Shown here piece after piece: positions 1,149 to 18,855 of a stretch of 21,484 bases of DNA. The notes beneath the pieces are model-generated. The model was not told the origin of the DNA and did not search any database. It saw nothing but the letters and a program-made list of their open reading frames with translations. Source of the stretch: Lachnospiraceae bacterium UBA4292 (GTDB lineage: Bacteria; Bacillota; Clostridia; Lachnospirales; Lachnospiraceae); contig DGVE01000041.1 of assembly GCA_002395865.1 (NCBI GenBank), forward strand, positions 1 to 21,484, in the 5' to 3' direction. Both the position numbers and the translations under genes were made by a program. Position 1 is the first letter of the stretch. Each line of letters starts with the position of its first letter.

Positions 1149-2294
1149 TTATCTGTTATTCAGAACGCTCACCAGACAGTTGTCCTTAGAGAGCGTATTT
1201 ACATTGTATAAAAACAATATGTCGTCATATCCGACGCTATCGGCCTGAAGGTCCAGGTCCTCGCTGTAGTACCTCGGGTCGATGACGGTTATCTGCTCAT
1301 ACGATCTCAGAAGAAAAGGCACGAAGCAGTTCGCGTAGGAATCCTTTATGAGAAGGAGCTTCCTGCCTTCCCCGCAGTCAGTCTTTATCGTAATGCGCGG
1401 GTAGTTACCGCCGAAGAAGACGAGATATTTATCGTCCTCCTCCAGCTTTGTCGTATCGTAGCAGGATACTGCCATCCTTCCCTCGCCGTCATAGCTTACA
1501 GTGTAATTCTGCTGTGAAAGGGGAAGATAGACTTTCACTGAATCCATCTTTGAAAGAGTATACCCGCTGCTTCCCGACAGGGTCCCGAGGAACTCATTGT
1601 CTATGACCACGGCGGAATACTCCTGCGATGTCAGCCCCATAACGGCCTGCGCGGCCAGAAATCCCATGTAGGCTCCGTCGCTCGTCCAGTGATGGTCGCT
1701 CGCGTAATATATATCAACCCTGTCCTTGTTGAGGGCAAATATCTCGCGCACGTCTATTGCCTTCAGTGACGAGAGCCCTCTGTAGATGTCGTCAATGTAA
1801 GCGTTCTGATCATCCCCCGGACAATACTCTCCGGCCCTGTCCGAGTACGTGCTCACGGCGTTCGGAACGAGGCAGAAATACGTCTTCGAATCCGCGTGAC
1901 GGGTGGCGAAGGCATTTACCGCCCAGGTGAGTTCCGTCGTATCCTGCGCACCGGGCTCGGTGAAGCACTCCGCCAGATGATCGGCGTCGAGCCTTATTAT
2001 GCCGTGGCTGGACTTTTTCCCCATGAGCGCAGCTGCCTCGGTCTTAAGAGTTATGAGACCGTCCCTCGCGGGAAAATGATCCGCCTCGTAGTCCTCCAGC
2101 CCCTCCATGAACCTTCCGTCCGTGACGGAAGCAGCGGATAGCTGCGGGAATGACGCGAGCACTCTCTTTTCGCGGGATGAGTATTCATTTTTAGGCAGGA
2201 TTACAAAGCAGAAGGTGCAACCAATGATCACAGCGGCAAATATAACACCATACAGCTTATAAAACAAACTGTTTTTATTTTTTTTCATGACCAC
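1149..2294 (-). CDS. DHHW-family (AlgX/AlgJ-like) O-acetyltransferase partner, cassette A
   Basis: This is an exported, membrane-anchored SGNH-like protein of the DHHW family. Such proteins usually pair with an MBOAT and are thought to transfer acetyl groups to extracellular glycans. The 381 residues start with one uncleaved-looking membrane segment at about 12-34, then a long extracytoplasmic domain. The family signature DHHWTSDGAY lies at 200-209; by analogy with AlgX, its Asp and His belong to the catalytic triad. A likely Ser nucleophile is Ser319 in KDSY, after the conserved stretch GGNY...ITIKT at 296-305. The start used is a GTG directly after the MBOAT stop, with AGG 6 bases upstream. 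An ATG two codons later, at 2288, is an equal alternative. The paralogue at 11474-12631 shares the signature, the GGNY and KDSY blocks and the IDPR(Y/F)Y block. The acyl group and target glycan cannot be read from sequence. Confidence 0.85.
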   Translation of the reverse strand: MVMKKNKNSLFYKLYGVIFAAVIIGCTFCFVILPKNEYSSREKRVLASFPQLSAASVTDGRFMEGLEDYEADHFPARDGLITLKTEAAALMGKKSSHGIIRLDADHLAECFTEPGAQDTTELTWAVNAFATRHADSKTYFCLVPNAVSTYSDRAGEYCPGDDQNAYIDDIYRGLSSLKAIDVREIFALNKDRVDIYYASDHHWTSDGAYMGFLAAQAVMGLTSQEYSAVVIDNEFLGTLSGSSGYTLSKMDSVKVYLPLSQQNYTVSYDGEGRMAVSCYDTTKLEEDDKYLVFFGGNYPRITIKTDCGEGRKLLLIKDSYANCFVPFLLRSYEQITVIDPRYYSEDLDLQADSVGYDDILFLYNVNTLSKDNCLVSVLNNR

Positions 2295-3668
2295 TTAGAA
2301 CCTGAAATACATGAACGGATTGTAGCTCTGCGCACTCATAAAGGCGGTGCACAGTACAAGAAGTGCCATTGCGTAGATCATAACGGCCGCTTTACCGGCC
2401 TCATTGTCCGTAAGCTTTTTGCAGAGCATGGCCGGCAGAGGCGTCGCAAAGAGCGCTCCGACGATAATGAGCTTCCAGCTCTCGATAAGGGCAAGTACGC
2501 TTAACTTATCGGTCAGTCCTGCCGCTCCGGCACCGAACATCGCCCCGATGGATGAAAACGCGGATGCCATATCGTTTGCGGAGAAGATCACCCAACCGAT
2601 GATGACAAAAAGCATGGTCAGTGGAAGCGCGACCGCCTTCGGAAGCTTTATATGCGATAAAACGTATTTTTCAAAGAGAAGCAGCAGACCGTAATACAGT
2701 CCCCATACTATGAAATTCCATGCGGCTCCGTGCCATAGGCCTGTCAGAAACCACACGATCATGATGTTTCTTATGTGCTTTGCAGCGGACACGCGGTTGC
2801 CGCCGAGGGGTATGTACACATACTCCCTGAACCAGCTTCCGAGGGAGATATGCCATCTCCTCCAGAACTCTGTGACGGATGAGCTGATGTATGGATGGTC
2901 GAAGTTCTCCCCGATGCGAAAGCCCAGCATACGCCCGAGACCGATAGCCATATCCGAATAGCCCGAAAAATCGAAGTAGATCTGAAGAGTGAAGCATACC
3001 GCCGCGATCCAGGCGCCGAGCACCGTGAGGTCTCCTGTGCCCAGCATCTCCACGGTCTCTCCGAGCACATTGGCCAGAAGGACCTTTTTCGCAAGACCGA
3101 ATGTAAATCTCATCGAGCCCCTTCCGAAGCCCTCGAGACTGATTCTCCTCTTCCTAAGCTGCGCGCTTATGTCCGAGTAGCGAACGATGGGTCCCGCTAT
3201 GAGCTGGGGGAACATGGCGATATATGCCGCGAAATCAACTATATTTCTCTGCGGCTTTACCTTGCCCCTGTAGACATCTATGACGTAGGAAAGCGCCTGA
3301 AATGTGTAGAAGCTTATTCCTATCGGAAGTGCCACCTTTAATTCCGGTATGTCCGCTCCTGTGATATCCCTCACGATACCGGTGAGGAAGCCGCAGTATT
3401 TGAAGAAGCCCAGTATCAGCAGGTTCGTGACCACGTTGAAGACGAGCACCTGCTTTTTGTTCGGTGACGACTCCATGATAAGTGCCGAAGCGTAGTTGAG
3501 TACTACGGAGTAGAGCATGAGAAGCACATACACCGGCTCGCCCCACGCGTAGAACACCAGCGAGAACATCGCCAGCACCGCGTTCTTGCGCTTAAACGGC
3601 ACCAGATAGTATACCAGCAGCACCGAGGGCAGAAATATGAATAAAAAAACCAGTCCCGAAAAAACCAT
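2295..3668 (-). CDS. MBOAT-family membrane O-acyltransferase (AlgI/DltB-like), cassette A
   Basis: This is an integral membrane acyltransferase of 457 residues, the usual size for AlgI/PatA-type MBOATs. It would move an acyl group, usually acetyl from a cytoplasmic donor, across the membrane for glycan modification. The N-terminus begins MVFSGLVFLFIFLP, and many hydrophobic segments follow. Family blocks visible in order are FYAWGEP (39-45), LPIGISFYTFQALSY (114-128), FPQLIAGP (153-160), FDFSGYSDMA (232-241), FWRRWHISLGSWFR (268-281), YIPLGGNR (285-292) and TGLWHGAAWNF (309-319). His313 in the last block is the invariant MBOAT histidine. The gene ends directly against the DHHW start and begins 23 bases after the DUF4358 stop. 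It is clearly related to the MBOAT at 12641-14062 but diverged along its whole length, so it is not a recent copy. Family is certain; the donor and acceptor are inferred. Confidence 0.93.
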   Translation of the reverse strand: MVFSGLVFLFIFLPSVLLVYYLVPFKRKNAVLAMFSLVFYAWGEPVYVLLMLYSVVLNYASALIMESSPNKKQVLVFNVVTNLLILGFFKYCGFLTGIVRDITGADIPELKVALPIGISFYTFQALSYVIDVYRGKVKPQRNIVDFAAYIAMFPQLIAGPIVRYSDISAQLRKRRISLEGFGRGSMRFTFGLAKKVLLANVLGETVEMLGTGDLTVLGAWIAAVCFTLQIYFDFSGYSDMAIGLGRMLGFRIGENFDHPYISSSVTEFWRRWHISLGSWFREYVYIPLGGNRVSAAKHIRNIMIVWFLTGLWHGAAWNFIVWGLYYGLLLLFEKYVLSHIKLPKAVALPLTMLFVIIGWVIFSANDMASAFSSIGAMFGAGAAGLTDKLSVLALIESWKLIIVGALFATPLPAMLCKKLTDNEAGKAAVMIYAMALLVLCTAFMSAQSYNPFMYFRF

Positions 3669-3691
3669 ATTTTACTTAATCGCCTCTCGTG

Positions 3692-4171
3692 TCAGTAAAC
3701 AAGTTTCTTGATCACATCATACCACTCGCCCGAATAAGGAGAGCAGATGTAGAAAGCATATCTTCCGCAGTTGAATACCTGCGCCTTTTCAAGCATGGCT
3801 ACCTGGTCCGGACCGTAGCCGGTAAAAGCAGTTATCTGGTCGCTCTTCCTCTTTTCAAGTGAGGCGAGGACCTCTTTTGCGCCTTTCTCGTTGCCTGCGT
3901 CCACCCACAGAAACTCGTTCACATCCATGGCTCGCTCATTGCCGTAGTAGACGAATGCGGGGTAATCGTTCATGTTCAGGCCGAAATTGCGTTTGACACT
4001 CATCTCGTAGGCGCGTTCCCCGCTGAAGCGATCCTGCGTAACATAGGGTTCACAGGCGGAGACTACAGCGTCCGCATCGATGTCTCTCACTTCATCCCGT
4101 CCGGTCAGTATATATATCACCGGCACCAGAAGAAGCACCAGCAGTATCTCGGCAGCGATGGTCTTTTTCAT
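3692..4171 (-). CDS. DUF4358-family membrane-anchored protein, cassette A
   Basis: This 159-residue protein has a short cytoplasmic tail (MKK), one membrane segment at about 5-23 and a small extracytoplasmic domain. It matches the DUF4358 pattern. Residues 86-109 carry the strand-helix block ending in ASLEKRKSDQ, followed by FTGYGPDQVAMLEKAQV (116-132) and a C-terminal strand and helix. No enzymatic motif is visible and the role is unknown. The ATG follows the SGNH lipoprotein stop directly (TAAATG), and GGGAG lies just upstream within the end of that gene, so the two are probably translationally coupled. The same SGNH-then-DUF4358 pairing recurs in cassette B. That makes an accessory role in glycan acylation, such as a scaffold or folding partner, a reasonable inference but no more. 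Unlike the cassette B copy it has three cysteines outside the membrane (Cys40, 135, 143). Confidence 0.8.
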   Translation of the reverse strand: MKKTIAAEILLVLLLVPVIYILTGRDEVRDIDADAVVSACEPYVTQDRFSGERAYEMSVKRNFGLNMNDYPAFVYYGNERAMDVNEFLWVDAGNEKGAKEVLASLEKRKSDQITAFTGYGPDQVAMLEKAQVFNCGRYAFYICSPYSGEWYDVIKKLVY

Positions 4172-5173
4172 TTAGTTCTCCCAAAGCCTCATCTGAATAG
4201 CCATGGCCTGAGCCCAGTACAGATGGTATTGCAGGTTGTAATGCGCACCCGAACCGTCGTCGATCTGGAACTGAGGCACGGCCCACAGCGACGCCTTCAC
4301 ATATGTACAGTTCTTCTCCGCCGCTATCTCGCGTATCATCTCATTATAGCGGTCCATGCGGAAATGGTTGTACCAGCGGTAGTAGTAGTTGGGGTTTATG
4401 GGCATGATCTCCTGAAGGTAGATCTGCCCGCCGGGATTGATCTCCCTGTATTTGTCAATGAGGGCGCAGTAGTCGTTCTTGAAACGCTGCTCCTCCCACA
4501 TATAATAACCCATATCGTTGACGCCGAGTATGATGAGCAGCTTGCCGCGATAAAGCCTTGCAGCTCTCTCAAACTCCTCCATCATGTCGTCGCAGTGGCA
4601 GGCCCACTTGTAGATGACCTCGTTGTTCGTCAGAAGTCCGGTATCCACCACGCACTGCGCGCGCGAATTGCCCACGATTATGACATCGGAGAACATGCGT
4701 CTTATGGCTGCGATATTGTCCGCACTTATGTTGTTTATCTTCCACGGCTCCATGGGCTCGTTCGAGGGTGCTCCCGATGCCAGAAAATCCGCAAATTCAG
4801 CCGCTTCTCTATCCCAGTCGATACCGTCGCGATAGTCCGTGCGGGGCGGCTGGGTTGGAGGTTCGGTGGGTGGTTCCGTCTGCGTCTCGGTAGGTTCCTC
4901 GGTCGTATCCTTTATATTGATGATTATCACCCCGGGATCGCTTTCTGTGGTCGTCTCCTGCTGAGGCTCCGGTTGCCGGGTCTGAGTTTCCTCAGCCGTG
5001 GGTTCTGCCTCCTGCGTCCCCCTCATGGCGGCTACGACGTGTGCCACATCCGCGTTCTCCCTCTCCTTCAGATAGGCGAGAGCGCTCTCATTTACGGTAT
5101 CCCCCGGCTTCGGTGAGCAGGCACCAAGCAGCAGAGCAGCCGCGATCGGCCATATTATCTTAGTTCTTTTCAT
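4172..5173 (-). CDS. SGNH/GDSL-like lipoprotein with GNS variant motif, cassette A
   Basis: This is a 333-residue exported lipoprotein. The signal runs from MKRTKI to LLLGAC (Cys19). Residues 55-110 form a low-complexity linker rich in Thr, Glu, Gln and Pro, with repeated TEPP/TEEP units. The C-terminal domain (about 130-333) looks like an SGNH hydrolase: block I is VGNSRA (Ser170) where most members have GDS, block III is LGVND (216-220), and a late GAHY (His311) may supply the catalytic His. A GTG at 5185 could extend it by four residues. The ATG at 5173 is preferred because the paralogue at 10471-11460 begins MKRT in the same position. The start lies inside the end of the CYTH gene. The role is unknown: it may be an acyl-transfer partner or an esterase acting beyond the wall. 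Whether the Asn for Asp change affects catalysis cannot be judged here. Confidence 0.8.
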   Translation of the reverse strand: MKRTKIIWPIAAALLLGACSPKPGDTVNESALAYLKERENADVAHVVAAMRGTQEAEPTAEETQTRQPEPQQETTTESDPGVIIINIKDTTEEPTETQTEPPTEPPTQPPRTDYRDGIDWDREAAEFADFLASGAPSNEPMEPWKINNISADNIAAIRRMFSDVIIVGNSRAQCVVDTGLLTNNEVIYKWACHCDDMMEEFERAARLYRGKLLIILGVNDMGYYMWEEQRFKNDYCALIDKYREINPGGQIYLQEIMPINPNYYYRWYNHFRMDRYNEMIREIAAEKNCTYVKASLWAVPQFQIDDGSGAHYNLQYHLYWAQAMAIQMRLWEN

Positions 5174-5678
5174 ATCCGTATTCACTTATGTAGCTGTTGT
5201 GGTATCTCGGCTCGAATGACACATCCTCCGAGAACACCTCAGCCATCTCATACGCCCGGGCCTGCCCCGCATCCGCAAATTCTATCTCGGCTATGACGAG
5301 TCCCTCGCACTCTCCCGAAAAAACATCGAGCTCGATGACTCTTCCGCCCCCGACTTCATCATGCGTCACAGTTCTTACAGGCTCCTCATCATCCCAGTGG
5401 ACGATATCCTCTGTATCTATGTAGTACCTGGTCTTTTCGATCCTGATGCCCTTTATGAGCGAGGAGAGTTCGGTGTAATCCTTCTCGGAAATAGGAAGAT
5501 TCACCTCGGTCCTCTTCAGAAAACCGTTCCCCTTTATCGTAAGGACATACGCGTCATTCTCACGCCTTATCCTGACGACCGGATCTGTCGAAATATACCC
5601 CTGCTCCATCCTGACTGACGCGAATCTGTCTATGGCCGCGGGGAGTCTTTTTACCAGAAATTTTCTCTCGATCTCCAT
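5160..5678 (-). CDS. CYTH-domain protein, probable triphosphatase
   Basis: This 172-residue protein of the CYTH (triphosphate tunnel metalloenzyme) family probably hydrolyses a triphosphate compound such as inorganic tripolyphosphate. The diagnostic ExExK is at the very N-terminus (MEIERKFLV; Glu2, Glu4, Lys6). Basic residues that line the tunnel follow in VRIRR (35-39) and TIKG (47-50), then EKTRYYI (81-87), and acidic strands ELDVF (117-121) and AEIEF (130-134). The open frame continues upstream to a TTG at 5717, but that lies inside a hairpin and family alignment demands the ATG at 5678. AGG lies about 15 bases upstream. The 3' end overlaps the SGNH lipoprotein start by 14 bases, an unusual link between a cytoplasmic phosphohydrolase and an envelope cassette. 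The true substrate is unknown. Confidence 0.88.
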   Translation of the reverse strand: MEIERKFLVKRLPAAIDRFASVRMEQGYISTDPVVRIRRENDAYVLTIKGNGFLKRTEVNLPISEKDYTELSSLIKGIRIEKTRYYIDTEDIVHWDDEEPVRTVTHDEVGGGRVIELDVFSGECEGLVIAEIEFADAGQARAYEMAEVFSEDVSFEPRYHNSYISEYGYEKN

Positions 5679-5715
5679 TTTCAGTACGATTCTACCTGCC
5701 TTGAAAACACAGTAC

Positions 5716-5737
5716 AAAGGAGGGGTATCCCTCCTTT
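5716..5737 (-). terminator. Perfect 9-bp hairpin between lipoprotein and CYTH genes
   Basis: AAAGGAGGG at 5716-5724 pairs with CCCTCCTTT at 5729-5737 around a 4-base loop. On the minus strand it follows the small-lipoprotein stop by 12 bases and is followed by TGTACTGTGTTTTC, only a weak U-rich tract. It could be a partial terminator or attenuator that lowers expression of the CYTH and cassette A genes, or an RNA processing or stability element. Its 5' arm, read on the minus strand, contains AAAGGAGG, a full ribosome-binding sequence with no start codon nearby. Confidence 0.55.
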
Positions 5738-5749
5738 GCCGTTATAATA

Positions 5750-6262
5750 TCACGGAGCTGCCGGCTCCTTATCGTCTACCATCTGCGCGCTCACGATCTT
5801 AGGTCCCTCAGGACTGACGACCTCTACGGTGATAACGTAGGTCTTTTTGGCATATTTTTCTGCGTAGAACTTGTTGCCGCCGGTTCCTATCATGGATTTG
5901 ACCTCCTGAAGCAGCACATCGTTCTCGCTGCGAAGTCCCTTGGATGAGAGCTTGACCACGGTCGTGCCCTTGATCGAGTCTCTGACCTCCTCCTCGGTGA
6001 GTGCAGAATTTACCGCGTCCTTCACCTTTTCGGCCAGCTTGTCATCCTTCTCGCGAAACTTCTTCTGCACATATTCCGTGTCGTCGTTTGAAAAGCCGCT
6101 CTCTATCTCGGGTATCTGATTTATATACTCGTATGCTGCATCGTAATCGCCCTCATCAAACGCGCTCGCAGCCAAAGACGCGAGCTTCTCCTGTTTGGAA
6201 GCTCCGCCGCAGCCGCACAGCAGTGCCGCAGCCGTAATCAGGCATATAACAGTCTTTTTCAT
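5750..6262 (-). CDS. Small lipoprotein of unknown function
   Basis: I do not recognise a named family for this 170-residue protein. The signal peptide MKKTVICLITAAALLCGC ends in a lipobox-like sequence (Cys18), so it is probably anchored to the outer face of the membrane. Residues 25-75 are helical and acidic, with a stretch FDEGDYDAAYEYINQI that resembles a single TPR-like repeat. Residues 125-165 look like a beta-rich C-terminal part (YVITVEVVSPEGPKIVSAQM). The ATG has GGGAGG 5 bases upstream, and that site overlaps the stop of the Abi gene, leaving a one-base gap. The two genes are therefore surely co-transcribed and probably coupled. No catalytic motif is seen. It could be an extracytoplasmic partner of the Abi protein by position, but that is only inference. 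Confidence 0.75.
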   Translation of the reverse strand: MKKTVICLITAAALLCGCGGASKQEKLASLAASAFDEGDYDAAYEYINQIPEIESGFSNDDTEYVQKKFREKDDKLAEKVKDAVNSALTEEEVRDSIKGTTVVKLSSKGLRSENDVLLQEVKSMIGTGGNKFYAEKYAKKTYVITVEVVSPEGPKIVSAQMVDDKEPAAP

Positions 6263-6263
6263 A

Positions 6264-7235
6264 TCAACCTCCCGAGCTGAGTGTGTACATACCCAGAAGC
6301 CTCTTTATGAGAAGCCAGCTCTCCTTGAGAATCAGGCTTCCGTCATAGTACTCCGCATGAAGCTTCGCGTCCCTGAATACCTGCATGAGCCCTGTGGCAG
6401 CCTCCCTTGTCTGAAGAAGCCCGCAAGCCTTCTCGTACGCGTAGAACAGGGCAATGATCTCGAGCGTAGGGCGCCCTGTGTATATCCTCTGATCGAACCT
6501 CCTGTCCGTTGTAAACCTGCCGATATATTCAAGCAGATCTCTCTGTATGAAGGTCCTCCCGCTGTTTAAGTCCACGAGCAGCTCATTGTTGTGAGCGCAA
6601 CCGTTTCTCAGGTCCCTGATAAGCGATATAACCGCACCCGCGATGTAATCCCTGTCTCTGCTCTCGTAATATGATTTGTAAAACTTCGAAAAATCGTAGA
6701 AATTCAGCGCCTCGGTGAGCACCCACGCCGGACAGTCGTCGTACGCGAGTATAGGTCTGCACTGATCGTCGCCCTTGTCCAGGGTGAAATACTTCTCGAG
6801 CATGCCCTTGGAGAACACCGTGGTCGCGTTGGTCTCTATCTGATGAAGTGCCGACTTGTCCTTCATGAGGAACTGCCTGACTATGTCATATCCGTCGGTC
6901 GTACCGTCAGCATCGATATCCACGAGTATCTTCGCCTTGAGTGCCTGCTCCAGATCCAGACACATGATGAGAAGCTCGCGCCTCAGAGCCCTGTCCAGTC
7001 TGTACAGCTCGAGCAGGGCTCCGAAATCAAGTCCTATGTATTTGCCGTTTTCGTCCTTGATATAGTTCTTTCTGAAGGCAGCCACACGGAAATAGTTCAT
7101 CTCGCGCGACAGCATGGCAAGCGCCTCCTCCTCACTCACGTGTTCAAAGGTTATGCCTTGATCCTTCAGCTTCTCTATGATCTGCTGCGGACTCCTCTTC
7201 GGCTTTGTTTTTTTATTGCTGGATCTTTCTCCCAT
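6264..7235 (-). CDS. Abi_2-family (AbiD/AbiF-like) HEPN protein
   Basis: This 323-residue protein of the Abi_2 family is best known from phage abortive-infection genes AbiD and AbiF. The N-terminal part is basic (GERSSNKKTKPKRSPQQ). The family block with NYFRVAAFRKNY (47-58) follows, then the helical region YRLDRALRRELLIMCLDLEQ (78-97). The HEPN-type R-x4-H motif is RDLRNGCAHNNELL (207-220; Arg210, His215), the expected metal-independent RNase centre. GGAGAG lies 4 bases before the ATG, fixing the start. It sits 31 bases downstream of the transketolase gene and one base before the lipoprotein gene. Family knowledge suggests an RNA-cleaving toxin activated by phage infection. Its placement inside what looks like a metabolic operon, with no antitoxin, transposase or adjacent non-coding gap, is unusual, so a housekeeping role is also possible. 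Confidence 0.85.
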   Translation of the reverse strand: MGERSSNKKTKPKRSPQQIIEKLKDQGITFEHVSEEEALAMLSREMNYFRVAAFRKNYIKDENGKYIGLDFGALLELYRLDRALRRELLIMCLDLEQALKAKILVDIDADGTTDGYDIVRQFLMKDKSALHQIETNATTVFSKGMLEKYFTLDKGDDQCRPILAYDDCPAWVLTEALNFYDFSKFYKSYYESRDRDYIAGAVISLIRDLRNGCAHNNELLVDLNSGRTFIQRDLLEYIGRFTTDRRFDQRIYTGRPTLEIIALFYAYEKACGLLQTREAATGLMQVFRDAKLHAEYYDGSLILKESWLLIKRLLGMYTLSSGG

Positions 7236-7266
7236 GGCACTCTCCGCCGCTTATATACTCTGAAGC

Positions 7267-8211: not shown

Positions 8212-9038
8212 AATCTCTTCTCCTCCTCGTTAAGCTCGTTCATGGCGATCTCGTACTCCGCGTCGTTCGGCGCCTTGCCGTGCCAGCCGACGCTTCCCTC
8301 CATGTAGGATACGCCCTTGCCCTTTAAAGTCTTCATGATGATGGCCGTGGGTCTTTCCTTCTCCTCGCGCGCCTTTGCGAACGCGTCGCGAAGCTGGTCG
8401 AAGTCATTGCCGTCGGCAACATTTATAACATTGAAATTGAATGCTTCGAACTTTTTGTCGATCGGATAGGGCGAGTTGACCTCGTCAATGGGGCCGTCGA
8501 TCTGAAGGCCGTTGTTGTCCACGATGACAACGAGATTCGAAAGCTTTCTGAAACCCGCGAACATGGCAGCCTCCCATACCTGGCCCTCCTCTATCTCGCC
8601 GTCGCCGAGAAGAGTGTACACTCTTAAGCTGCTGCCCTTTCTCTTGGCGCCTAAAGCCATGCCGACAGCGGCGCTGATGCCCTGTCCGAGCGAGCCTGAG
8701 GACATATCCACACCCGGTGTGTGGCCGAGGCAGGGATGTCCCTGAAGGTTCGAGCCTACATGTCTCAAGGTCTTTAACTCCTCAACGGGGAAATATCCGC
8801 GGTTTGCGAGTGCGGAATAGAGTCCGGGCGCTGTATGTCCCTTTGAGAGCACGAAACGGTCTCTCTCGGGATCATCCGGGTGCTTCGGGTCGATATTCAT
8901 CTCCTCGAAGTAGAGATATGTAAAGAGATCTGCGGCTGAGAGCGATCCGCCCGGGTGCCCGCATTTTGCGGAGTGAACGCCCTCTATGATGCCCTTTCTG
9001 ACTTGCAGTGCCTTCTTTTGCAGTTCAAGCTTGTCCAT
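8199..9038 (-). CDS. Transketolase, N-terminal subunit
   Basis: This 279-residue subunit binds the thiamine diphosphate pyrophosphate group. Visible motifs are CGHPGGSLSAAD (26-37), LSKGHTAPGLY (64-74) and SSGSLGQGISAAVGMALGAK (113-132). The classic thiamine diphosphate and Mg binding signature runs from GDGEIEEGQ (145-153) to VIVDNNGLQIDG (171-182). The length is normal for the N-terminal half of a split transketolase. The start is clear: AAGGAGG lies just upstream of ATG 9038, and the next upstream in-frame sequence is intergenic. It is the first gene of the long leftward run, and a promoter with an extended -10 lies about 40 bases upstream. Function is confident from motifs and pairing. 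Confidence 0.94.
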   Translation of the reverse strand: MDKLELQKKALQVRKGIIEGVHSAKCGHPGGSLSAADLFTYLYFEEMNIDPKHPDDPERDRFVLSKGHTAPGLYSALANRGYFPVEELKTLRHVGSNLQGHPCLGHTPGVDMSSGSLGQGISAAVGMALGAKRKGSSLRVYTLLGDGEIEEGQVWEAAMFAGFRKLSNLVVIVDNNGLQIDGPIDEVNSPYPIDKKFEAFNFNVINVADGNDFDQLRDAFAKAREEKERPTAIIMKTLKGKGVSYMEGSVGWHGKAPNDAEYEIAMNELNEEEKRLCQM

Positions 9039-9079
9039 AAAAACCTCCTTGTTTTTGCATTAAAGCATACCTGTTCCAT

Positions 9080-9088
9080 ACTATAACA
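9080..9088 (-). promoter_or_regulatory. Putative extended -10 promoter for the transketolase run
   Basis: On the minus strand the sequence reads TGTTATAGT, an extended -10 (TGnTATAGT) with the hexamer at 9080-9085. The best -35 at normal spacing (GTGAAA) is poor, which an extended -10 can offset. The hexamer lies 41 bases before the ATG at 9038, giving a leader of about 35 bases that contains AAGGAGG. It is the only good promoter-like element upstream of the transketolase pair. Confidence 0.5.
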
Positions 9089-9191
9089 TAGAACTTAACA
9101 TTTTTCACCAACAAAATTCGCAAATCAGCAAAAGAATCGCAAAAAATACCTCGGGTGGGGATTCGATGATACGTTAGACCCATAAAAAAAA

Positions 9192-9208
9192 TGTAAAATA
9201 AATGTAAA
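9192..9208. promoter_or_regulatory. TTTACA direct repeats, 11-bp period (possible operator)
   Basis: On the minus strand TTTACA occurs twice (9203-9208 and 9192-9197) with 5 bases between, so both lie on the same face of the helix. This matches the form of a PhoP box in Bacillus (TT(A/C/T)ACA repeats about 11 bases apart). It lies just upstream of the putative -35 at 9216. PhoP sites normally have more repeats and the region is AT-rich, so chance or an UP element is quite possible. Confidence 0.25.
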
Positions 9209-9215
9209 TTTACTA

Positions 9216-9244
9216 TTGCGAAATCGTTTCAGATAATGTACTAT
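9216..9244 (+). promoter_or_regulatory. Putative sigma-A promoter for the plus-strand membrane protein
   Basis: A -35 TTGCGA (9216-9221) and a -10 TACTAT (9239-9244) are separated by 17 bases. Each matches four of six consensus bases. The expected start near 9251 would give a leader of about 40 bases with AGGAGG at 9275-9280. The whole gap 9039-9291 is AT-rich and serves two divergent units; apart from these elements I see no gene or strong RNA structure in it. Confidence 0.45.
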
Positions 9245-9291
9245 CAATCAGTAGGAAATACATCACATCCCATCAGGAGGCACTGCATAAC

Positions 9292-9912
9292 ATGAAAAAG
9301 AAACCGATCATTGCATCTGTAATCATTCTCCTTGTCTTCGGAGCACTGACCATTTTTCTGACCATCTACACTATGGACAGACTTCTGGGAAAGGACGTTG
9401 ATTTCTATGAGCTCATAGAGAACAACGATCCGTCCTCTATGAAGGGCAAATACGTCTCGCTCCATGTGGACGGCGTTTTAGGCAACTATGCCGAGATGCA
9501 GCACAAGATCAACGGCATCATCCCCGCCGGTACCGATCAGTACTATGTGGTCTGGCTCGATAATGACTACGTCATATCACTCAAGGTCAAGAGCAAGGAC
9601 ACCATCAACAAGCTTGAGGAGCTCACCGACGATACTTGGGACTACATCGACGAAAAACGTAACGATCTTCCTGACGGCATCGTGGTCAAGGGTACCATCT
9701 CCACCACCAACAGCAAGATAGAGCCCTTCTATAAGGAGGCCCTTCAGAAGCTCGGCGTCCTTGACAGCGATTCCATCACGAAGCCCTACTATCTGACCAT
9801 CGATATCACCGAGGATCGCACGACTGCATTCCTCGAGGTTGGCTTCTGCCTGCTGATGACACTGGTAGGCCTTATCATGCTGATATCAAATATCAAGAAC
9901 AGGTATAACTAA
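9292..9912 (+). CDS. Two-pass membrane protein of unknown function
   Basis: I do not recognise this 206-residue protein with confidence. The only plus-strand gene in the window, it has a membrane segment near the N-terminus (about 6-27, IIASVIILLVFGALTIFLTI) and another near the C-terminus (about 180-199). A domain of about 150 residues lies between them, probably outside the cell if the KKK start stays in. The middle part has alternating strands (KYVSLHVDGVLGNY, YYVVWLDNDYVISLKVK) and an acidic helix, with no catalytic motif. AGGAGG lies 11 bases before the ATG, a slightly long spacing. Its own promoter lies upstream and a strong shared terminator downstream, so it is a single-gene unit wedged between the two minus-strand acylation regions. 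A sensor or envelope-maintenance role would be a guess. Confidence 0.8.
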   Translation: MKKKPIIASVIILLVFGALTIFLTIYTMDRLLGKDVDFYELIENNDPSSMKGKYVSLHVDGVLGNYAEMQHKINGIIPAGTDQYYVVWLDNDYVISLKVKSKDTINKLEELTDDTWDYIDEKRNDLPDGIVVKGTISTTNSKIEPFYKEALQKLGVLDSDSITKPYYLTIDITEDRTTAFLEVGFCLLMTLVGLIMLISNIKNRYN

Positions 9913-9933
9913 GACTGTTTCAGACAGCGAATA

Positions 9934-9977
9934 AAAAAGATCCTTCGACTCGTATACGCGTTTCGAAGGATCTTTTT
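9934..9977. terminator. Bidirectional rho-independent terminator
   Basis: GATCCTTCGA (9939-9948) pairs perfectly with TCGAAGGATC (9963-9972) across a 14-base loop, flanked by AAAAA on the left and TTTTT on the right. It therefore ends in a U-tract whichever way it is transcribed. It lies between the convergent ends of the plus-strand membrane protein and cassette B. Confidence 0.92.
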
Positions 9978-9985
9978 CTTTTCAT

Positions 9986-10474
9986 CTACTCTCCCGACGC
10001 GAGCTTCTCCCACGCCTGAAGCACCTCGGGGGCCTTCTCGTCTATTATCAGCCCCGCATACGGCCAGTGCACGAAGATCTGTGCCGCATTTATCTTTACC
10101 ATCTGCTCCACGCCGTAGTTCTTGAATACGTTCACGCGGTCATCTATCCTCTCCTGAAGAGCAGCCTTCACCGCCTCAGTCTGCGACTTGTCGCCTATGC
10201 GCAGTATCAGTATCTCCTTCGCGTCCATATTTGTCGCCGGAACATAAAGCACATGCTCCACCGTATCGGGCTCTATGCCGTAGAGATTTCGGATATCGAG
10301 GGACTTGCCCTCCTTCATATCCTCCTCACCCGTTATCGACAACGCCTTATTCATAAACTCGGAGATATCTGCTTCGGCGATCTTCTGTGGCCTCAGTATC
10401 AGCACAGCCACCGCAGCGATCACCGCAAATACAGCGATCTCCAGCGCTATAAGTGCTCTGTTAGCCTTTTTCAT
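9986..10474 (-). CDS. DUF4358-family membrane-anchored protein, cassette B
   Basis: This 162-residue protein begins MKKANRALIALEIAVFAVIA, a single membrane segment, followed by an extracytoplasmic domain of the DUF4358 type. The shared core is visible as KEILILRIGDKSQTEAVKAA and VNVFKNYGVEQMVKINAAQI, aligning with the equivalent block of the cassette A copy. The open frame extends upstream to 10657, but the ATG at 10474 overlaps the SGNH lipoprotein stop as ATGA, and it starts with MKK plus a membrane helix like its paralogue, so the shorter start is clear. It has no cysteines, whereas the cassette A copy has three outside the membrane. It is the last gene of cassette B. Function is unknown; the repeated pairing with an SGNH lipoprotein suggests they act together. 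Confidence 0.8.
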   Translation of the reverse strand: MKKANRALIALEIAVFAVIAAVAVLILRPQKIAEADISEFMNKALSITGEEDMKEGKSLDIRNLYGIEPDTVEHVLYVPATNMDAKEILILRIGDKSQTEAVKAALQERIDDRVNVFKNYGVEQMVKINAAQIFVHWPYAGLIIDEKAPEVLQAWEKLASGE

Positions 10475-11460
10475 ACAAGCACATCCTCCCAGTCGGTCAC
10501 TACCGCGGTGACATATTTCAGCCAGAGGTTGTAGAATATCTTGTTGAAATGTATGCCATCCGCAAGATATAAAGGCTGCGACACCATCCAGTGCAGGTCG
10601 ATGTAGGTCACATCCGCGGTCGGACACCAGGCCCGAAGCTGGTCGTCGAACATCCACGACCGAGCCAGATCCTCCCTGGCGGCCGCCACCGCATTGCTCG
10701 GAGGCAGGAGCGCGCAGATATATATCTTTACCCCGGGCACCCTCTCACGCAGGAGGTTCACAAGCGCCGCGTACTTTTCGCAATATGACACCGGATCCTC
10801 GTGGTCAACATCTCCCAGACCCTTGAAGAATACCACCTTCTCCGGAAATACGGATGCAGCTGCCTCCACATACGGCGTGATCTCCTTGAGCAGAACTCCC
10901 CTCTTGAAAAACACCATGCTCTCGGGCACCATACCCTCCGTCACCAGCGCCTGCGTGACCGAATCACCTACGAATACAGTTCCCGAAAGCTTGGAAAGAA
11001 GGTTTGCGTGTTCCTCGGAGCTTAACAGGCTGATATTTCCTTCAGCCACCTGAGCGCTCCACGCGGCCATCGCCTCCTCCTTCACCTGCTCCTTCGTTTT
11101 CGCGCTCGGTGCAGGCTCGGTTGGTATCTCCTCTGTCGTTGTTTCGATGTCCGGATCCTCATCCGTGACCGGGTTATCGTCTGTCTGCGCCTCCTGTGTC
11201 GCAGGCTGTGTGTCCGGCCTGATGGGCTCCTGCGTTATCTGTTCAGGGGTATCGGGTTCCTGCGCGGTCTGCTCCTGCGTAACGGTCTGCGAGGGCTTCG
11301 CGGTCTGCTCCCTCTGATAAGCCACCACCTCCTCCACGGCTATTGCCTCCATGGAGGACATATACTCCCTGGCCTCTTTGTATCTGTCCTCCTCCTTTGC
11401 ACAGCCTGCCGTGAGCATGCATGCGATCAGAGGACCTATGATATAACCTGTTCTTTTCAT
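10471..11460 (-). CDS. SGNH/GDSL-like lipoprotein, cassette B
   Basis: This is a 329-residue lipoprotein. The signal MKRTGYIIGPLIACMLTAGC gives Cys20. Then comes a helical stretch and a long Thr/Gln/Glu/Pro-rich linker (about 52-118), probably spanning the cell wall. The SGNH-like domain has FVGDSVTQ (163-170; Ser167 as nucleophile), a block III region reading KGLGD (213-217) and DGIHF (301-305; Asp301, His304). The usual GxND of block III is here GLGD, so the Asn that normally helps form the oxyanion hole is missing. The cassette A paralogue has the opposite pattern: GNS in block I but intact GVND. The start is preceded by GGGTGAAAG and lies 13 bases after the DHHW stop. The role is likely glycan acyl transfer or removal; the order of events with the DHHW protein is unknown. 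Confidence 0.82.
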   Translation of the reverse strand: MKRTGYIIGPLIACMLTAGCAKEEDRYKEAREYMSSMEAIAVEEVVAYQREQTAKPSQTVTQEQTAQEPDTPEQITQEPIRPDTQPATQEAQTDDNPVTDEDPDIETTTEEIPTEPAPSAKTKEQVKEEAMAAWSAQVAEGNISLLSSEEHANLLSKLSGTVFVGDSVTQALVTEGMVPESMVFFKRGVLLKEITPYVEAAASVFPEKVVFFKGLGDVDHEDPVSYCEKYAALVNLLRERVPGVKIYICALLPPSNAVAAAREDLARSWMFDDQLRAWCPTADVTYIDLHWMVSQPLYLADGIHFNKIFYNLWLKYVTAVVTDWEDVLV

Positions 11461-11473
11461 GATCTTTCACCCA

Positions 11474-12631
11474 TCACTGCTCTATCACCAGTGTAAATGA
11501 ATTATCCTCCAGAAAAGTATTCCTGCTGTAGCACACCAGGACCTTCCTGTCGCGGTACTGGCTCGCAAGAAGCGTCGCGTCCCCGTCGTAGAACCTCGGG
11601 TCGATAAAGGTTATCTCCTCGAAATCGTCCAGAAGATACGGCAGCAGCGCGTTGAAATACGAATCCTTGAATACCAAAAGCTTTCCGGCTCCCTTGTGCG
11701 ACGTCTTTATCGTCACCTCGCCATAGTTACCGCCCATAAATACCGTGTAAGGGTCGGGTCCGTCCACCGCATCCATGTCGTATATCGTAGTCGTATAACC
11801 GGTTTGGCCGGATATTCTGACGAGTATCATGGGCATTCTGTCCGGAACCGGTATGTCGATTGTATCGGTCTTAAGAGCCGTTCCGTACTTTGCCGCGAGA
11901 GTTCCGCCAAAACCCCCGCACACCGGCAGGAGCTTATACTCCTTTGCCTCCATACCCCAGAGCTTCATCAGCTCTTTGTAGGCTTCGTATGCGCCCGCGC
12001 TCGTCCAGTGGTGATCCGTACGGTAGTACACCTGCGTGCCGCCCTCGTAAGCTTTCAGAAGCGCATCGCGGACATCGCACACATTTACTGAAGATGGAAG
12101 CTTATCCGTAAGCTCGGAAAATGCCTCGAGTCTATCCTGCGTGCCCTCCCGCGCATATCCGGGCAGCAGGTCCGAGCAAACATCCGCCGCGGCAGGTACC
12201 GCTAAAAGCGTGATATCCTGCCATATATCGCAGGCACGCAGCAGTGCGCTGTACGCGGATGGGAGCTTTTCACCGGGCACCTTCGGCATATCCATCAGGT
12301 AACCGTCGGCGCACCTGTACACTCCGCCGTTTTCCCTGTTAAAAGTCGCGCTCTTTACCGCGCAGTACGCGCTCATCAGCGCGTCCCGCCCCGCGACCTG
12401 GTCCTTCGCGTACTCCTCGAAGCCCTCCTCGAACCTACCGTCAAGAACCGCTCCGTTTTCCGCTGACGGAAACTGCGCAAGGCTCCTCCTCTCCCTGTCG
12501 CTGTATGCGCGGGCGGGGAGAAGTGCGTTTATCAGCGCAAACGCGATCCACACTGCGGGGATCAGATATACACATATCAGTTTGCGGGCGGGATCCTTTT
12601 TCCTTCGTCCGCCCTTTTTCACATCAGTCAT
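11474..12631 (-). CDS. DHHW-family (AlgX/AlgJ-like) O-acetyltransferase partner, cassette B
   Basis: This 385-residue protein has a basic start (MTDVKKGGRRKKDPARK), one membrane anchor at about 18-38 and an extracytoplasmic SGNH-like domain. The signature TDHHWTSAGAY lies at 205-215. MGGNYGEVTIKT (299-310) and FKDSYFNALLPYL (321-333; Ser324 as candidate nucleophile) follow, then ITFIDPRFY. The early block YSDRERRSLAQFP (43-55) matches YSSREKRVLASFP of the cassette A copy, showing common descent. AGGGG upstream of the ATG overlaps the MBOAT stop region, leaving a 9-base gap, so the MBOAT and DHHW proteins are probably made together. By analogy with alginate and peptidoglycan systems it would accept an acyl group from the MBOAT and place it on a glycan. 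The target is unknown. Confidence 0.86.
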   Translation of the reverse strand: MTDVKKGGRRKKDPARKLICVYLIPAVWIAFALINALLPARAYSDRERRSLAQFPSAENGAVLDGRFEEGFEEYAKDQVAGRDALMSAYCAVKSATFNRENGGVYRCADGYLMDMPKVPGEKLPSAYSALLRACDIWQDITLLAVPAAADVCSDLLPGYAREGTQDRLEAFSELTDKLPSSVNVCDVRDALLKAYEGGTQVYYRTDHHWTSAGAYEAYKELMKLWGMEAKEYKLLPVCGGFGGTLAAKYGTALKTDTIDIPVPDRMPMILVRISGQTGYTTTIYDMDAVDGPDPYTVFMGGNYGEVTIKTSHKGAGKLLVFKDSYFNALLPYLLDDFEEITFIDPRFYDGDATLLASQYRDRKVLVCYSRNTFLEDNSFTLVIEQ

Positions 12632-12640
12632 TTAATACCC

Positions 12641-14062
12641 CTAAAATCTGAAATACAAAAACGGATTGTACGAATCGTGCACGAGCGCCATAAGGCACAG
12701 CACCAGAACCGCCAAAAGCCATGCGACGGTAATATATGCATGCTTTTTGTAAAGGTTCTTTAAGAACCTTCCCGTGCCTTTTAAAACACCGATCAGACAC
12801 AGTGCGAATGTGACGCCGTAACCCGACAGTATCCTGCCCATGGTCACAGATCCGGCAGCTCCGGCTATGCCCGCGGTCATTGAAAATCCTCCCGCACCGA
12901 ACATGCCTGCCAGAAACCTCCCCATGCTGCCCATATCGGTGAACGCGAATATCACCCATCCGACGATCACGATAAACATGGTATATATATGCCCTATCAC
13001 CGGGTGCGCCTCTATCCTGCTGCCCCACACATACTTTTCAAGTACAAGCAGCACACCGTAGTAGACGCCCCACAGCATGAAGTTCCATCCCGCCCCGTGC
13101 CAGAAGCCGGTAAGCAGCCACACGATCAGCAGATTTCTTATGTGCTTTTTTACGCCTCCCCTGTTGCCTCCGAGGGGAATGTATACATAGTCGCGAAACC
13201 ACGAGCTAAGCGTTATATGCCATCTTCTCCAGAAGTCGGTCACAGACTTTGCGGTGTAGGGAGCATTGAAATTCACAGGGAATTTAAAGCCGAACATTTC
13301 GCCCAGACCCATTGCCATATCCGAATAGCCCGAGAAATCATAGTAGATCTGCAGCGTAAATGCCGCCGCCCCGATCCAGGTAAAGCCGAAAGACCATTCG
13401 CCGCATTCGGATATCATGGTAAAAAGCTGCCCCATCGGATTGGCCAGAAGCACCTTTTTGCCAAGACCTATGATAAAGCGCCACATTCCCCTGCGAAGCT
13501 TCGCGCTCGTCACGGGGTGATCGCCCAGCTGGTCCTGCATCTCCTTGTATACCACGATCGGGCCCGCGATAAGCTGCGGAAACATCGTGATATAAAGAGC
13601 AAACGAAAGCAGATTCCTCTGCGGCTTGACCCCTCCCCCGGCCACATCGACCACATAGGACAGTGCCTGAAATGTGTAGAAGGATATACCTATCGGAAGA
13701 GCGACCTCTATCTCCTCCACCGGGACGATGTGCCCGAGCACACCGGTGAAGAAGCCCGCGTACTTGAACAGGCCCAGCAGGGAAAGATTCGCGGCCACAG
13801 CGAGGCCGAGATGGAGCCTGATCAGCTTATTGTCCGCATCGGTTACCGCCGCCTCCTTTGCCCGCCCTATCAACGCGCCGAAGGCATAGTTCATCATGAT
13901 GGAGAAAAGCATCAGCAGAAGGTATACCGGCTCTCCCCACGCATAGAAAAACAGGCTGGCAACGAGCAGCACCCCGTTCTTAAAAGAAGCGGGGCACAGA
14001 TAGTACACCAGCCAGAGCGTCGGCAGAAAATATAACAAAAATGTCAGACTTGAAAAAACCAT
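12641..14062 (-). CDS. MBOAT-family membrane O-acyltransferase (AlgI/DltB-like), cassette B
   Basis: This 473-residue multi-pass protein has all the MBOAT blocks: FYAWGEP (39-45), LPIGISFYTFQALSY (122-136), FPQLIAGP (161-168), YDFSGYSDMA (241-250), FWRRWHITLSSWFR (277-290), YIPLGGNR (294-301) and TGFWHGAGWNF (318-328), with His322 as the invariant residue. It is about 16 residues longer than the cassette A copy, mostly from an insertion at about 66-84 in a loop. Nucleotide identity with the other MBOAT is limited to short conserved cores, for example 13318-13335 against 2949-2966. That indicates an old duplication or separate acquisition. It is the first gene of cassette B, 69 bases after mfd, with a possible promoter in the gap. 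Confidence 0.93.
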   Translation of the reverse strand: MVFSSLTFLLYFLPTLWLVYYLCPASFKNGVLLVASLFFYAWGEPVYLLLMLFSIMMNYAFGALIGRAKEAAVTDADNKLIRLHLGLAVAANLSLLGLFKYAGFFTGVLGHIVPVEEIEVALPIGISFYTFQALSYVVDVAGGGVKPQRNLLSFALYITMFPQLIAGPIVVYKEMQDQLGDHPVTSAKLRRGMWRFIIGLGKKVLLANPMGQLFTMISECGEWSFGFTWIGAAAFTLQIYYDFSGYSDMAMGLGEMFGFKFPVNFNAPYTAKSVTDFWRRWHITLSSWFRDYVYIPLGGNRGGVKKHIRNLLIVWLLTGFWHGAGWNFMLWGVYYGVLLVLEKYVWGSRIEAHPVIGHIYTMFIVIVGWVIFAFTDMGSMGRFLAGMFGAGGFSMTAGIAGAAGSVTMGRILSGYGVTFALCLIGVLKGTGRFLKNLYKKHAYITVAWLLAVLVLCLMALVHDSYNPFLYFRF

Positions 14063-18357: not shown

Positions 18358-18855
18358 CTACTCGTGATGCTCCATCTTTTCTATCCTTTTCACCTCAGCT
18401 ATGACCTTCGCCTCCCAGTCATCATCCTGCGCGTCAAGACGGTATACGTTGAAGCCGTAGGTTCTGCCCTGCACCGCTACGATCTCCTCATCGTCGATGT
18501 GCAGAGATATCCTGTACTTGCTGGGCATCTTGTTGGGAAGTGTGTCCCTTTTTCCCCTCTGCACCTCATCCATATGCCTCTGCCCATTGACTATACCGTC
18601 GAATTTCACATGATAATGCTTAAACAGCCTTCTGATATACTTTTCAGTCCTGAACGACGATGTGTAGACCCAAACTTCATATCCCATCTCCTGAAGCTTA
18701 GGGATCAGTCTGGCTGCGCCGAGCCTCAGTCTCTCCTTGTATATCAGGCAAAAAGGCCAGGAAAGCTGCGGCTCAACCTTGTGATCCTTCGGGTCCACGA
18801 ACAGGACCTCGTCGAGGTCAAAGGATACACGCATTTTCCCTGATAGTTCGATCAT
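18358..18855 (-). CDS. Stand-alone HAD-like hydrolase
   Basis: This 165-residue protein is a compact HAD-like domain. Motif I is VSFDLDEVLF (10-19; Asp13 nucleophile, Asp15), motif II is VWVYTSS (61-67; Thr66 or Ser67), and the late acidic motif is HIDDEEIV (119-126; Asp121, Asp122). These are the expected residues for a phosphohydrolase or phosphotransferase. The substrate is not recognisable. It is a paralogue of the C-terminal domain of the gene just upstream: both share (R/L)VSFDLDEV, the (E/D)VWVYTS block and the DG(I/M)(V/I)NG block. The ATG at 18855 overlaps the upstream stop as ATGA and has GGAGGAG upstream; a GTG at 18867 is a weaker alternative. Co-translation suggests a complex or shared pathway. 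Confidence 0.78.
   Translation of the reverse strand: MIELSGKMRVSFDLDEVLFVDPKDHKVEPQLSWPFCLIYKERLRLGAARLIPKLQEMGYEVWVYTSSFRTEKYIRRLFKHYHVKFDGIVNGQRHMDEVQRGKRDTLPNKMPSKYRISLHIDDEEIVAVQGRTYGFNVYRLDAQDDDWEAKVIAEVKRIEKMEHHE

What the first reader, a model, noticed from the sequence alone, without database searches (positions are those of the whole stretch)
1149..14062. Two four-gene O-acylation cassettes with circularly permuted order
Cassette A (5173-1149) runs SGNH lipoprotein, DUF4358, MBOAT, DHHW. Cassette B (14062-9986) runs MBOAT, DHHW, SGNH lipoprotein, DUF4358. All four families occur in both, on the same strand, about 4.8 kb apart. The pairs SGNH-DUF4358 and MBOAT-DHHW are each kept intact and tightly spaced, so two two-gene modules seem to be the units. 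B is also the inner frame of a tandem A-A array, so tandem duplication followed by loss is one possible origin. MBOAT plus an SGNH-like partner is a known acetylation pair; the constant addition of a linker-bearing SGNH lipoprotein and DUF4358 suggests a four-part machine that may not have been described as such.
Basis: partly seen in the sequence, partly recalled or inferred. Interest (0 to 1): 0.8.

Follow-up and report, generated by a model that had tools for sequence, protein, structure and literature searches.

The report
DUF4358-linked MBOAT acetylation gene cassettes
Two old copies of a four-gene kit that probably attaches acetyl groups to the cell surface of gut Clostridia sit close together here, and relatives with the parts fused into single proteins suggest that a domain of unknown function, DUF4358, is a working part of the kit.

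Summary
Both cassettes are real: SGNH-DUF4358-MBOAT-DHHW (A) and MBOAT-DHHW-SGNH-DUF4358 (B). Both MBOATs end in the FXYXXF acyl-shuttle motif of MBOAT-SGNH transferases; DHHW and SGNH keep Ser, His and Asp. In a class-wide sample, 53 of 83 DUF4358 genes lie within 6 kb of both MBOAT and DHHW, and 68 of 70 genomes with DUF4358 have DHHW. The strongest evidence is fusion: all 120 listed clusters carry DHHW, SGNH and DUF4358 in one protein; DUF4358 is also fused to DHHW alone, transglutaminase-like domains and DUF2599. A and B belong to two lineages present in same-genus genomes; a recent window-only duplication is rejected in all four families, and the permuted order occurs elsewhere. Corrections: SGNH is frequent (38 of those 53), not constant, and mostly not a lipoprotein. 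Most likely this is an envelope O-acetylation machine with DUF4358 as adaptor, working like alginate AlgIJFX but not a member. Whether SGNH is terminal transferase or esterase is open. No activity, polymer or contact is shown.

The parts
4172..5173 (-). Cassette A, SGNH (Lipase_GDSL_2) lipoprotein; GTG start at 5185 also possible
   Evidence: 52.7 bits, cut-off 32.9; lipobox-like LGAC; Ser, Asp and His present, block II Gly replaced by Ala
3692..4171 (-). Cassette A, DUF4358: N-terminal helix (probable membrane anchor) and an alpha/beta domain
   Evidence: 75.3 bits; AlphaFold2 mean pLDDT 91.7
2295..3668 (-). Cassette A, MBOAT with WHG and C-terminal FMYFRF (FXYXXF)
1149..2294 (-). Cassette A, DHHW (PatB1-like SGNH-type acetyltransferase family)
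   Evidence: 98.2 bits; PDB 5v8d B. cereus PatB1 E 1.2e-21, 4nzk E 8.5e-14
3..1133 (-). CE2-type SGNH esterase, lipoprotein-like, running off the window, 15 nt downstream of A; possible fifth gene of the A lineage
   Evidence: CE2_N 49.6 bits and Lipase_GDSL_2 47.7; a CE2_N protein follows DHHW in same-genus locus L145
12641..14062 (-). Cassette B, MBOAT with C-terminal FLYFRF (FXYXXF)
11474..12631 (-). Cassette B, DHHW with catalytic residues present
10471..11460 (-). Cassette B, SGNH lipoprotein; Ser, Asp and His present, block III Asn replaced by Gly
9986..10474 (-). Cassette B, DUF4358; ATG overlaps the SGNH stop codon (ATGA)

Best explanation
Each cassette most likely encodes one envelope O-acylation machine (acyl group probably acetyl). 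Inferred steps: MBOAT takes the acyl group from cytoplasmic acyl-CoA onto the Tyr of its C-terminal FXYXXF motif; that Tyr passes it to the catalytic Ser of DHHW outside the membrane; DHHW passes it to a surface polymer, directly or by way of the second Ser enzyme (SGNH). DUF4358 is a membrane-anchored, extracytoplasmic adaptor that holds DHHW and an exchangeable outer enzyme (SGNH here, transglutaminase-like in others) together. For SGNH I commit, narrowly, to a second acyl-handling step comparable to AlgX, as terminal transferase (about 0.4); an editing esterase is nearly as likely (about 0.35, rival 1). The confidence given is for the machine with DUF4358 as adaptor, whichever role SGNH has, so it overlaps with rival 1. 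Shown: gene order, motifs, fusions, co-occurrence, a predicted fold, matching lineages. Not shown: any activity, the acyl group, the polymer, or physical contact.
For: Window MBOATs end in FMYFRF and FLYFRF; 160 of 162 pooled MBOATs end in FXYXXF and 160 of 162 have WHG (frames under 380 aa and one contig-edge frame left out). This motif is the acyl shuttle of PatA and DltX (PMC12148441, abstract and passages). DHHW Asp 169/170, His 170/170, Ser 169/170 with one gap. SGNH Ser-Asp-His 95/101. All 120 listed clusters carry DHHW, Lipase_GDSL_2 and DUF4358 in one chain; in 79 of them aligned, the residues of both catalytic centres are invariant. Further DUF4358 fusions: with DHHW (L147; L150, L117), Transglut_core (L164; L116, L152), DUF2599 (L144). 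53 of 83 DUF4358 genes lie within 6 kb of MBOAT and DHHW; 68 of 70 genomes with DUF4358 have DHHW against 78 of 221 without (not corrected for relatedness). A and B show matching lineages. AlgF is the precedent for a non-catalytic adaptor between two SGNH-type proteins (PMC10641220, abstract and passages).
Against: 27 of 83 DUF4358 genes have neither MBOAT nor DHHW within 6 kb, 14 of these with SGNH only. 15 of the 53 with MBOAT and DHHW show no SGNH by my profile, so SGNH is not obligatory. In the MBOAT-centred sample only 36 of 80 loci have a DUF4358 hit of 35 bits or more; 16 more are weak (20 to 34 bits) and may be another family. SGNH keeps the hydrolase-type block II Gly in 71 of 101 and block III Asn in 95 of 101, and the SGNH-sized structural matches listed for the fusion model are mainly esterases and hydrolases. 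The fusion model has pTM 0.59, so it does not show how the domains pack. The adaptor role of DUF4358 is inferred from fusions and analogy. None of the 22 largest neighbour clusters looks, by eye, like a dedicated polysaccharide gene, so the polymer is unknown.
Confidence: 0.6

Rival explanations
1. Write-and-erase set: MBOAT and DHHW acetylate the polymer, and SGNH (plus CE2 in cassette A) are esterases that trim or recycle acetyl groups, as Ape1 does beside PatA-PatB. DUF4358 tethers the esterase to the transferase. (Overlaps with the best explanation except for the role of SGNH.)
For: SGNH block II Gly in 71 of 101 and block III Asn in 95 of 101; the two PDB sequences matched by the A SGNH at E 0.01 are a 'Sialate O-acetylesterase | Lysophospholipase L1' and a 'Lysophospholipase L1'; SGNH-sized matches of the fusion model are mainly esterases and hydrolases; precedent patA-patB-ape1 with Ape1 an authentic esterase (PMC6174289, passages); a CE2 protein follows cassette A and same-genus L145.
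Against: Esterase and transferase in one chain with both centres invariant risks a futile cycle; 39 of 79 fusion SGNH domains have Ser (26) or Ala (13) in place of the block II Gly, and a change to Ser or Asn goes with transferases in PMC12148441 (passages); window A has Ala there and window B lacks the block III Asn.
Confidence: 0.35
2. The association is only operon convenience: MBOAT-DHHW is a complete PatA1/PatB1-like pair, and SGNH-DUF4358 is a separate envelope module under shared control.
For: SGNH and DUF4358 occur without MBOAT or DHHW within 6 kb in 14 of 83 cases, and MBOAT-DHHW occurs without any DUF4358 hit in 22 of 80 MBOAT-centred loci, as also on the window genome's contig C140.
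Against: DHHW-SGNH-DUF4358 and DUF4358-DHHW fusions; 68 of 70 genomes with DUF4358 have DHHW; matching A and B lineages.
Confidence: 0.15
3. B arose from A by a recent tandem duplication in this genome followed by loss of the outer modules.
For: Same strand, 4.8 kb apart; MHSD is the inner frame of SDMH-SDMH; L141 and L136 show S-D-M-H followed by another SGNH.
Against: winA+winB as a pair is rejected: AU p 0.0024 (MBOAT), 0.00016 (DHHW), 2.4e-59 (SGNH), 0.0051 (DUF4358). B-type relatives exist in two same-genus genomes that also hold A-type loci. MHSD order also occurs in L070 and L130 and, fused, in the H-S-D group. The extra SGNH of L141 and L136 has very long branches and is not shown to be a B member.
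Confidence: 0.04

Closest known systems
Alginate acetylation complex AlgI-AlgJ-AlgF-AlgX (Pseudomonas)
   Same: MBOAT, an SGNH-type protein, a non-catalytic adaptor and a second SGNH-type protein; the fusion model matches AlgJ structures (4o8v, E 1.9e-9) and AlgX (4knc).
   Different: DUF4358 is predicted alpha/beta after one N-terminal helix, whereas AlgF is described as two beta-sandwich domains. The second SGNH here is a GDSL_2 type, not AlgX-type. No alginate gene was noted among the window's ORFs.
PatA1-PatB1, secondary wall polysaccharide O-acetylation (Bacillus cereus)
   Same: MBOAT plus DHHW; window DHHW A matches PatB1 5v8d at E 1.2e-21.
   Different: DUF4358 is not named in that review (PMC9487903, passages; word search); the DUF4358 association appears additional.
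CcsH-CcsI of the clostridial ccsZABHI cellulose locus
   Same: MBOAT-DHHW pair in Clostridia (PMC7710045, passages).
   Different: No cellulose synthase or endocellulase was found among the window genes scanned; DUF4358 is not named there.
OAP cluster PatA-PatB-Ape1 (peptidoglycan O-acetylation)
   Same: MBOAT, SGNH transferase and SGNH esterase in one cluster (PMC6174289, passages).
   Different: PatB is of the DUF459 type (PMC9487903), not DHHW; no DUF4358; the role of SGNH here is unproven.
DltB-DltX-DltD teichoic acid D-alanylation
   Same: MBOAT, FXYXXF shuttle Tyr and SGNH-type transferase (PMC12148441).
   Different: Window MBOATs score 167 and 152.9 bits against a DltB cut-off of 375, and the shuttle motif is on the MBOAT itself.

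Membership tests
Bacterial MBOAT-SGNH acyltransferase pair | MBOAT with conserved His | tested here: met
   Pfam MBOAT over cut-off for A and B; WHG invariant in A2 and in 160 of 162 pooled MBOATs
Bacterial MBOAT-SGNH acyltransferase pair | C-terminal FXYXXF acyl-shuttle motif | tested here: met
   FMYFRF (A), FLYFRF (B); 160 of 162 pooled
Bacterial MBOAT-SGNH acyltransferase pair | Adjacent SGNH-type partner with Ser, His and Asp | tested here: met
   DHHW adjacent in A and B, residues present
Bacterial MBOAT-SGNH acyltransferase pair | Acyl transfer from acyl-CoA to a surface polymer | not testable with these tools
   needs biochemistry
AlgIJFX | AlgJ/AlgX-like SGNH partner | tested here: met
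   ALGX Pfam profile 44.5 bits for DHHW B (cut-off 26.5) but 25.5, just below, for DHHW A; AlgJ structures match the fusion model
AlgIJFX | AlgF of two beta-sandwich domains | tested here: not met
   DUF4358 model has helices and two beta pairs after its N-terminal helix, unlike the AlgF description
AlgIJFX | Second SGNH is AlgX-type | tested here: not met
   The second SGNH of A and B matches Lipase_GDSL_2, with no ALGX match listed at E 1
Dlt D-alanylation | MBOAT is DltB | tested here: not met
   TIGR04091 167 and 152.9 bits, cut-off 375
Ccs cellulose locus | Cellulose synthase and endocellulase next to MBOAT-DHHW | tested here: not met
   None among the window proteins scanned; the rest of the genome was not searched for it
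OAP PatA-PatB-Ape1 | PatB of DUF459 type | tested here: not met
   Partners match DHHW and Lipase_GDSL_2; no DUF459 match listed at E 1
TiME (Mycobacterium tuberculosis) fold | Same fold as DUF4358 | tested here: inconclusive

The most novel reading that the evidence does not exclude
DUF4358 is the hub of an undescribed, modular surface-acylation platform of Clostridia: a fixed MBOAT-DHHW engine onto which DUF4358 plugs exchangeable outer enzymes (SGNH, transglutaminase-like, perhaps DUF2599). Where SGNH is present, the acyl group runs Tyr to Ser to Ser to polymer, a relay that arose independently of AlgIJFX and in one large group has collapsed into a single DHHW-SGNH-DUF4358 protein.
Probability: 0.35. 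Interest if true: 0.75.

Novelty: new variant of a known kind. Interest (0 to 1): 0.62.

Why it matters
DUF4358 is a domain of unknown function found in 70 of 291 sampled genomes of this class, and the word occurs in one paper of the open-access library searched, as a table entry in a proteomics study. Placing it beside a known chemistry makes its function testable with one deletion or pull-down. If right, many gut Clostridia modify their surface with a multi-part acylation machine that a two-part (MBOAT plus SGNH) view would miss, and the triple fusion is a ready single-chain subject for structure work.

Tried and rejected

Local-model DUF4358 hits that are false or weak: L145:7046-7825 is an SBP_bac_3 protein. 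In the MBOAT-centred sample 16 of 52 clusters with a DUF4358 hit score under 35 bits, 15 in D-M-H form and 1 D-M. In A4, used for folding, 30 of 39 members match PF14270 at E 0.01; the other 9 are variants.

Not followed: whether DUF4358 presence maps onto one MBOAT clade; whole-genome search for a cellulose or S-layer locus; 1 of 3 homologous-protein searches unused.
Full report
OBSERVATION. Eight genes on the minus strand form two cassettes, and all pass Pfam's curated cut-offs. A runs SGNH (5173-4172), DUF4358 (4171-3692), MBOAT (3668-2295), DHHW (2294-1149). B runs MBOAT (14062-12641), DHHW (12631-11474), SGNH (11460-10471), DUF4358 (10474-9986). Gaps are 0 to 23 nt, and in B the DUF4358 start overlaps the SGNH stop as ATGA. 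The two MBOATs are 51% identical. The assembly (71.7% complete, 231 contigs) has no other DUF4358 match and one further MBOAT-DHHW pair on C140.

DISTRIBUTION. DUF4358 matches 70 of 291 genomes of the class and DHHW 146 of 291 at E 0.001. Of the 70, 68 have DHHW, against 78 of the 221 genomes without DUF4358 (Fisher p 2e-22, not corrected for relatedness). I fetched 80 neighbourhoods; five weak matches (E 3e-6 to 5e-4) were not fetched. With local profiles, clusters in those 80 plus the window and C140 are: S-D-M-H 28, S-D 15, D 12, D-M-H 11, M-[H-S-D fused] 7, M-H 3, M-H-S-D 2, and seven other arrangements once each. Per gene, 53 of 83 DUF4358 hits have both MBOAT and DHHW within 6 kb (38 of these also SGNH), 3 have one of the two, 14 have SGNH only and 13 none. 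This sample was drawn by DUF4358, so it cannot say how often SGNH stands alone.

In the opposite direction, the 80 best relatives of the MBOAT alignment in named genomes give D-M-H 31, M-H 22, S-D-M-H 13 and other forms; 52 of 80 have a DUF4358 hit in the cluster, but only 36 of 80 at 35 bits or more. The weak 16 all lack SGNH; they sit at the DUF4358 position upstream of MBOAT and may be divergent members or another family. With strong hits only, D-M-H and forms with SGNH are about equal: 16 of 80 clusters hold SGNH, 15 of these with a strong DUF4358. L167 being Blautia sp. An81 and L155 of the window's family, that family is probably the one of Blautia (inference).

FUSIONS. The DHHW-SGNH-DUF4358 protein of L060 (821 aa, Pfam confirmed) finds 146 proteins at E 1e-20 (only the 7991 candidates sharing most words were scored); all 120 listed clusters carry PF14286, PF13472 and PF14270. 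In an alignment of 79 of these 120, the DHHW Asp-His-His, Ser and Asp/Arg and the SGNH Gly-Asp-Ser, Gly-x-Asn and Asp-Gly-x-His are invariant (assignment to blocks is mine). DUF4358 is also joined to DHHW (L147, L150; L117, where the AlgX profile is over cut-off and DHHW is not), to Transglut_core (L164, L116, L152) and to DUF2599 (L144); in L143 a DUF2599 protein is a separate neighbour. L144 also has DHHW fused to SGNH. Transglutaminase-like genes lie upstream of DUF4358 in L107, L146, L174, L180, L194 and L228.

MOTIFS. Both window MBOATs end in FXYXXF (FMYFRF, FLYFRF), as do 160 of 162 pooled MBOATs; the exceptions are L067 and L158. In PatA this Tyr is auto-acetylated, and an acetylated peptide of it serves PatB as donor (PMC12148441, abstract and passages). 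DHHW: Asp 169, second His 170, Ser 169 of 170. SGNH: full triad 95 of 101; block II Gly 71 of 101, Ser 19, Ala 5; block III Asn 95 of 101. Window A has Ala at block II; window B has Gly at block III. Of the six SGNH members lacking part of the triad, one shows only a gap. In the fusions block II is Gly 40, Ser 26, Ala 13 of 79. PatB transferases have Ser or Asn there (PMC12148441, passages), so this residue does not settle the role. A lipobox pattern is found in 10 of 89 SGNH and 85 of 146 DUF4358 standalone proteins.

TREES. Same-genus genomes hold A-type loci (L141, L142, L145) and B-type loci (L143, L144); two of the three hold both. The A lineage also includes L136 of another genus of the family. 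With 25 or 26 rows per family, chosen by me after the earlier trees: A clade support 99/99 (MBOAT), 99/95 (DHHW, without L142), 99/94 (SGNH), and for DUF4358 not recovered but not rejected (p 0.355). B clade support 60/93, 91/89, 100/99 and 82/74. A+B together: DHHW 100/98, SGNH 79/86, DUF4358 92/92, MBOAT not recovered and not rejected (p 0.41). Only some of these are starred by the tool (A: all three recovered; B: SGNH; A+B: DHHW). The pair winA+winB is rejected in all four. So a whole-cassette duplication before the genus split is the best reading. In L143 and L144 the DUF4358 gene faces the M-H-S genes, so it has moved within the B lineage. M-H-S-D order also occurs in L070 and L130 and, fused, in the H-S-D group. 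No window flanking gene tested was found in the same-genus loci (the CE2 gene was missing from that query), so the neighbourhoods are not conserved.

MECHANISM AND RIVALS. The first half (MBOAT to DHHW) follows established chemistry by homology. The adaptor role of DUF4358 rests on its fusion to different partners and on the AlgF precedent: AlgF binds AlgJ and AlgX, has no esterase activity and is proposed to bring them together for an acetyl relay (PMC10641220, abstract and passages). AlgX is placed as the terminal transferase (PMC4148444, abstract). For SGNH I favour a terminal transferase slightly over an Ape1-like esterase. The CE2 protein next to A is a likely esterase in any case.

PRIOR WORK. 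'DUF4358' is in 1 paper of the library, a table entry. MBOAT with DHHW gives two papers; MBOAT, SGNH and Lachnospiraceae one (listing only); MBOAT, transglutaminase and SGNH none; a wider query gave nine, of which I read passages of five, and none of the nine can name DUF4358 given. The library is open access only, so a description elsewhere is not excluded.

VERDICT. A real, recurrent and, in the library searched, undescribed extension of the MBOAT-SGNH acylation systems; ordinary in chemistry, new in its DUF4358 link and in the fusions.

Noticed in passing
window 6264-7235 (-): Abi_2 family protein (84.5 bits), also PADLOC AbiD (74.8 bits), between the two cassettes; possible abortive-infection gene.
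   Followed up: no
window 3-1133 (-): CE2-type esterase, lipoprotein-like, directly downstream of cassette A; a CE2_N protein is in the same place in L145.
   Followed up: partly
window 18358-19718 (-): Two adjacent proteins with a similar-looking C-terminal part (by eye); the longer one has a ParB_N match just below cut-off, the shorter no Pfam match.
   Followed up: no
window 9292-9912 (+): DUF6709 protein on the opposite strand between the split transketolase genes and cassette B.
   Followed up: no
L010 (G000 C140) 3-2045: The DHHW frame ends in what looks like an unrelated tail and is followed by a DUF4340 gene of different look; the contig may be a chimera.
   Followed up: no
L107, L108, L146, L148, L174, L180, L194, L228: Transglutaminase-like proteins form one sequence cluster near DUF4358; six were confirmed by Pfam. 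A second type of outer partner.
   Followed up: partly
L129:11495-14932 and L203 (1207-aa frame): DHHW at the end of proteins over 1100 aa; in L129 the long N-terminal part has no clear Pfam match; L203 seen only.
   Followed up: no
L081, L093, L103, L105, L123: SGNH partners of DUF4358 that have lost catalytic Ser and/or His, possibly structural only.
   Followed up: no
L042, L084, L101, L170, L213, L235: A protein resembling an ECF sigma factor (by eye, not scanned) recurs near DUF4358 in six loci.
   Followed up: no
L171, L179, L184, L186, L190, L193, L195, L198, L200, L202, L208, L231, L240 and others: A small lipoprotein-like or membrane-anchored protein upstream of MBOAT with only a weak DUF4358 score (20 to 34 bits); perhaps a divergent relative taking the same place.
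   Followed up: partly
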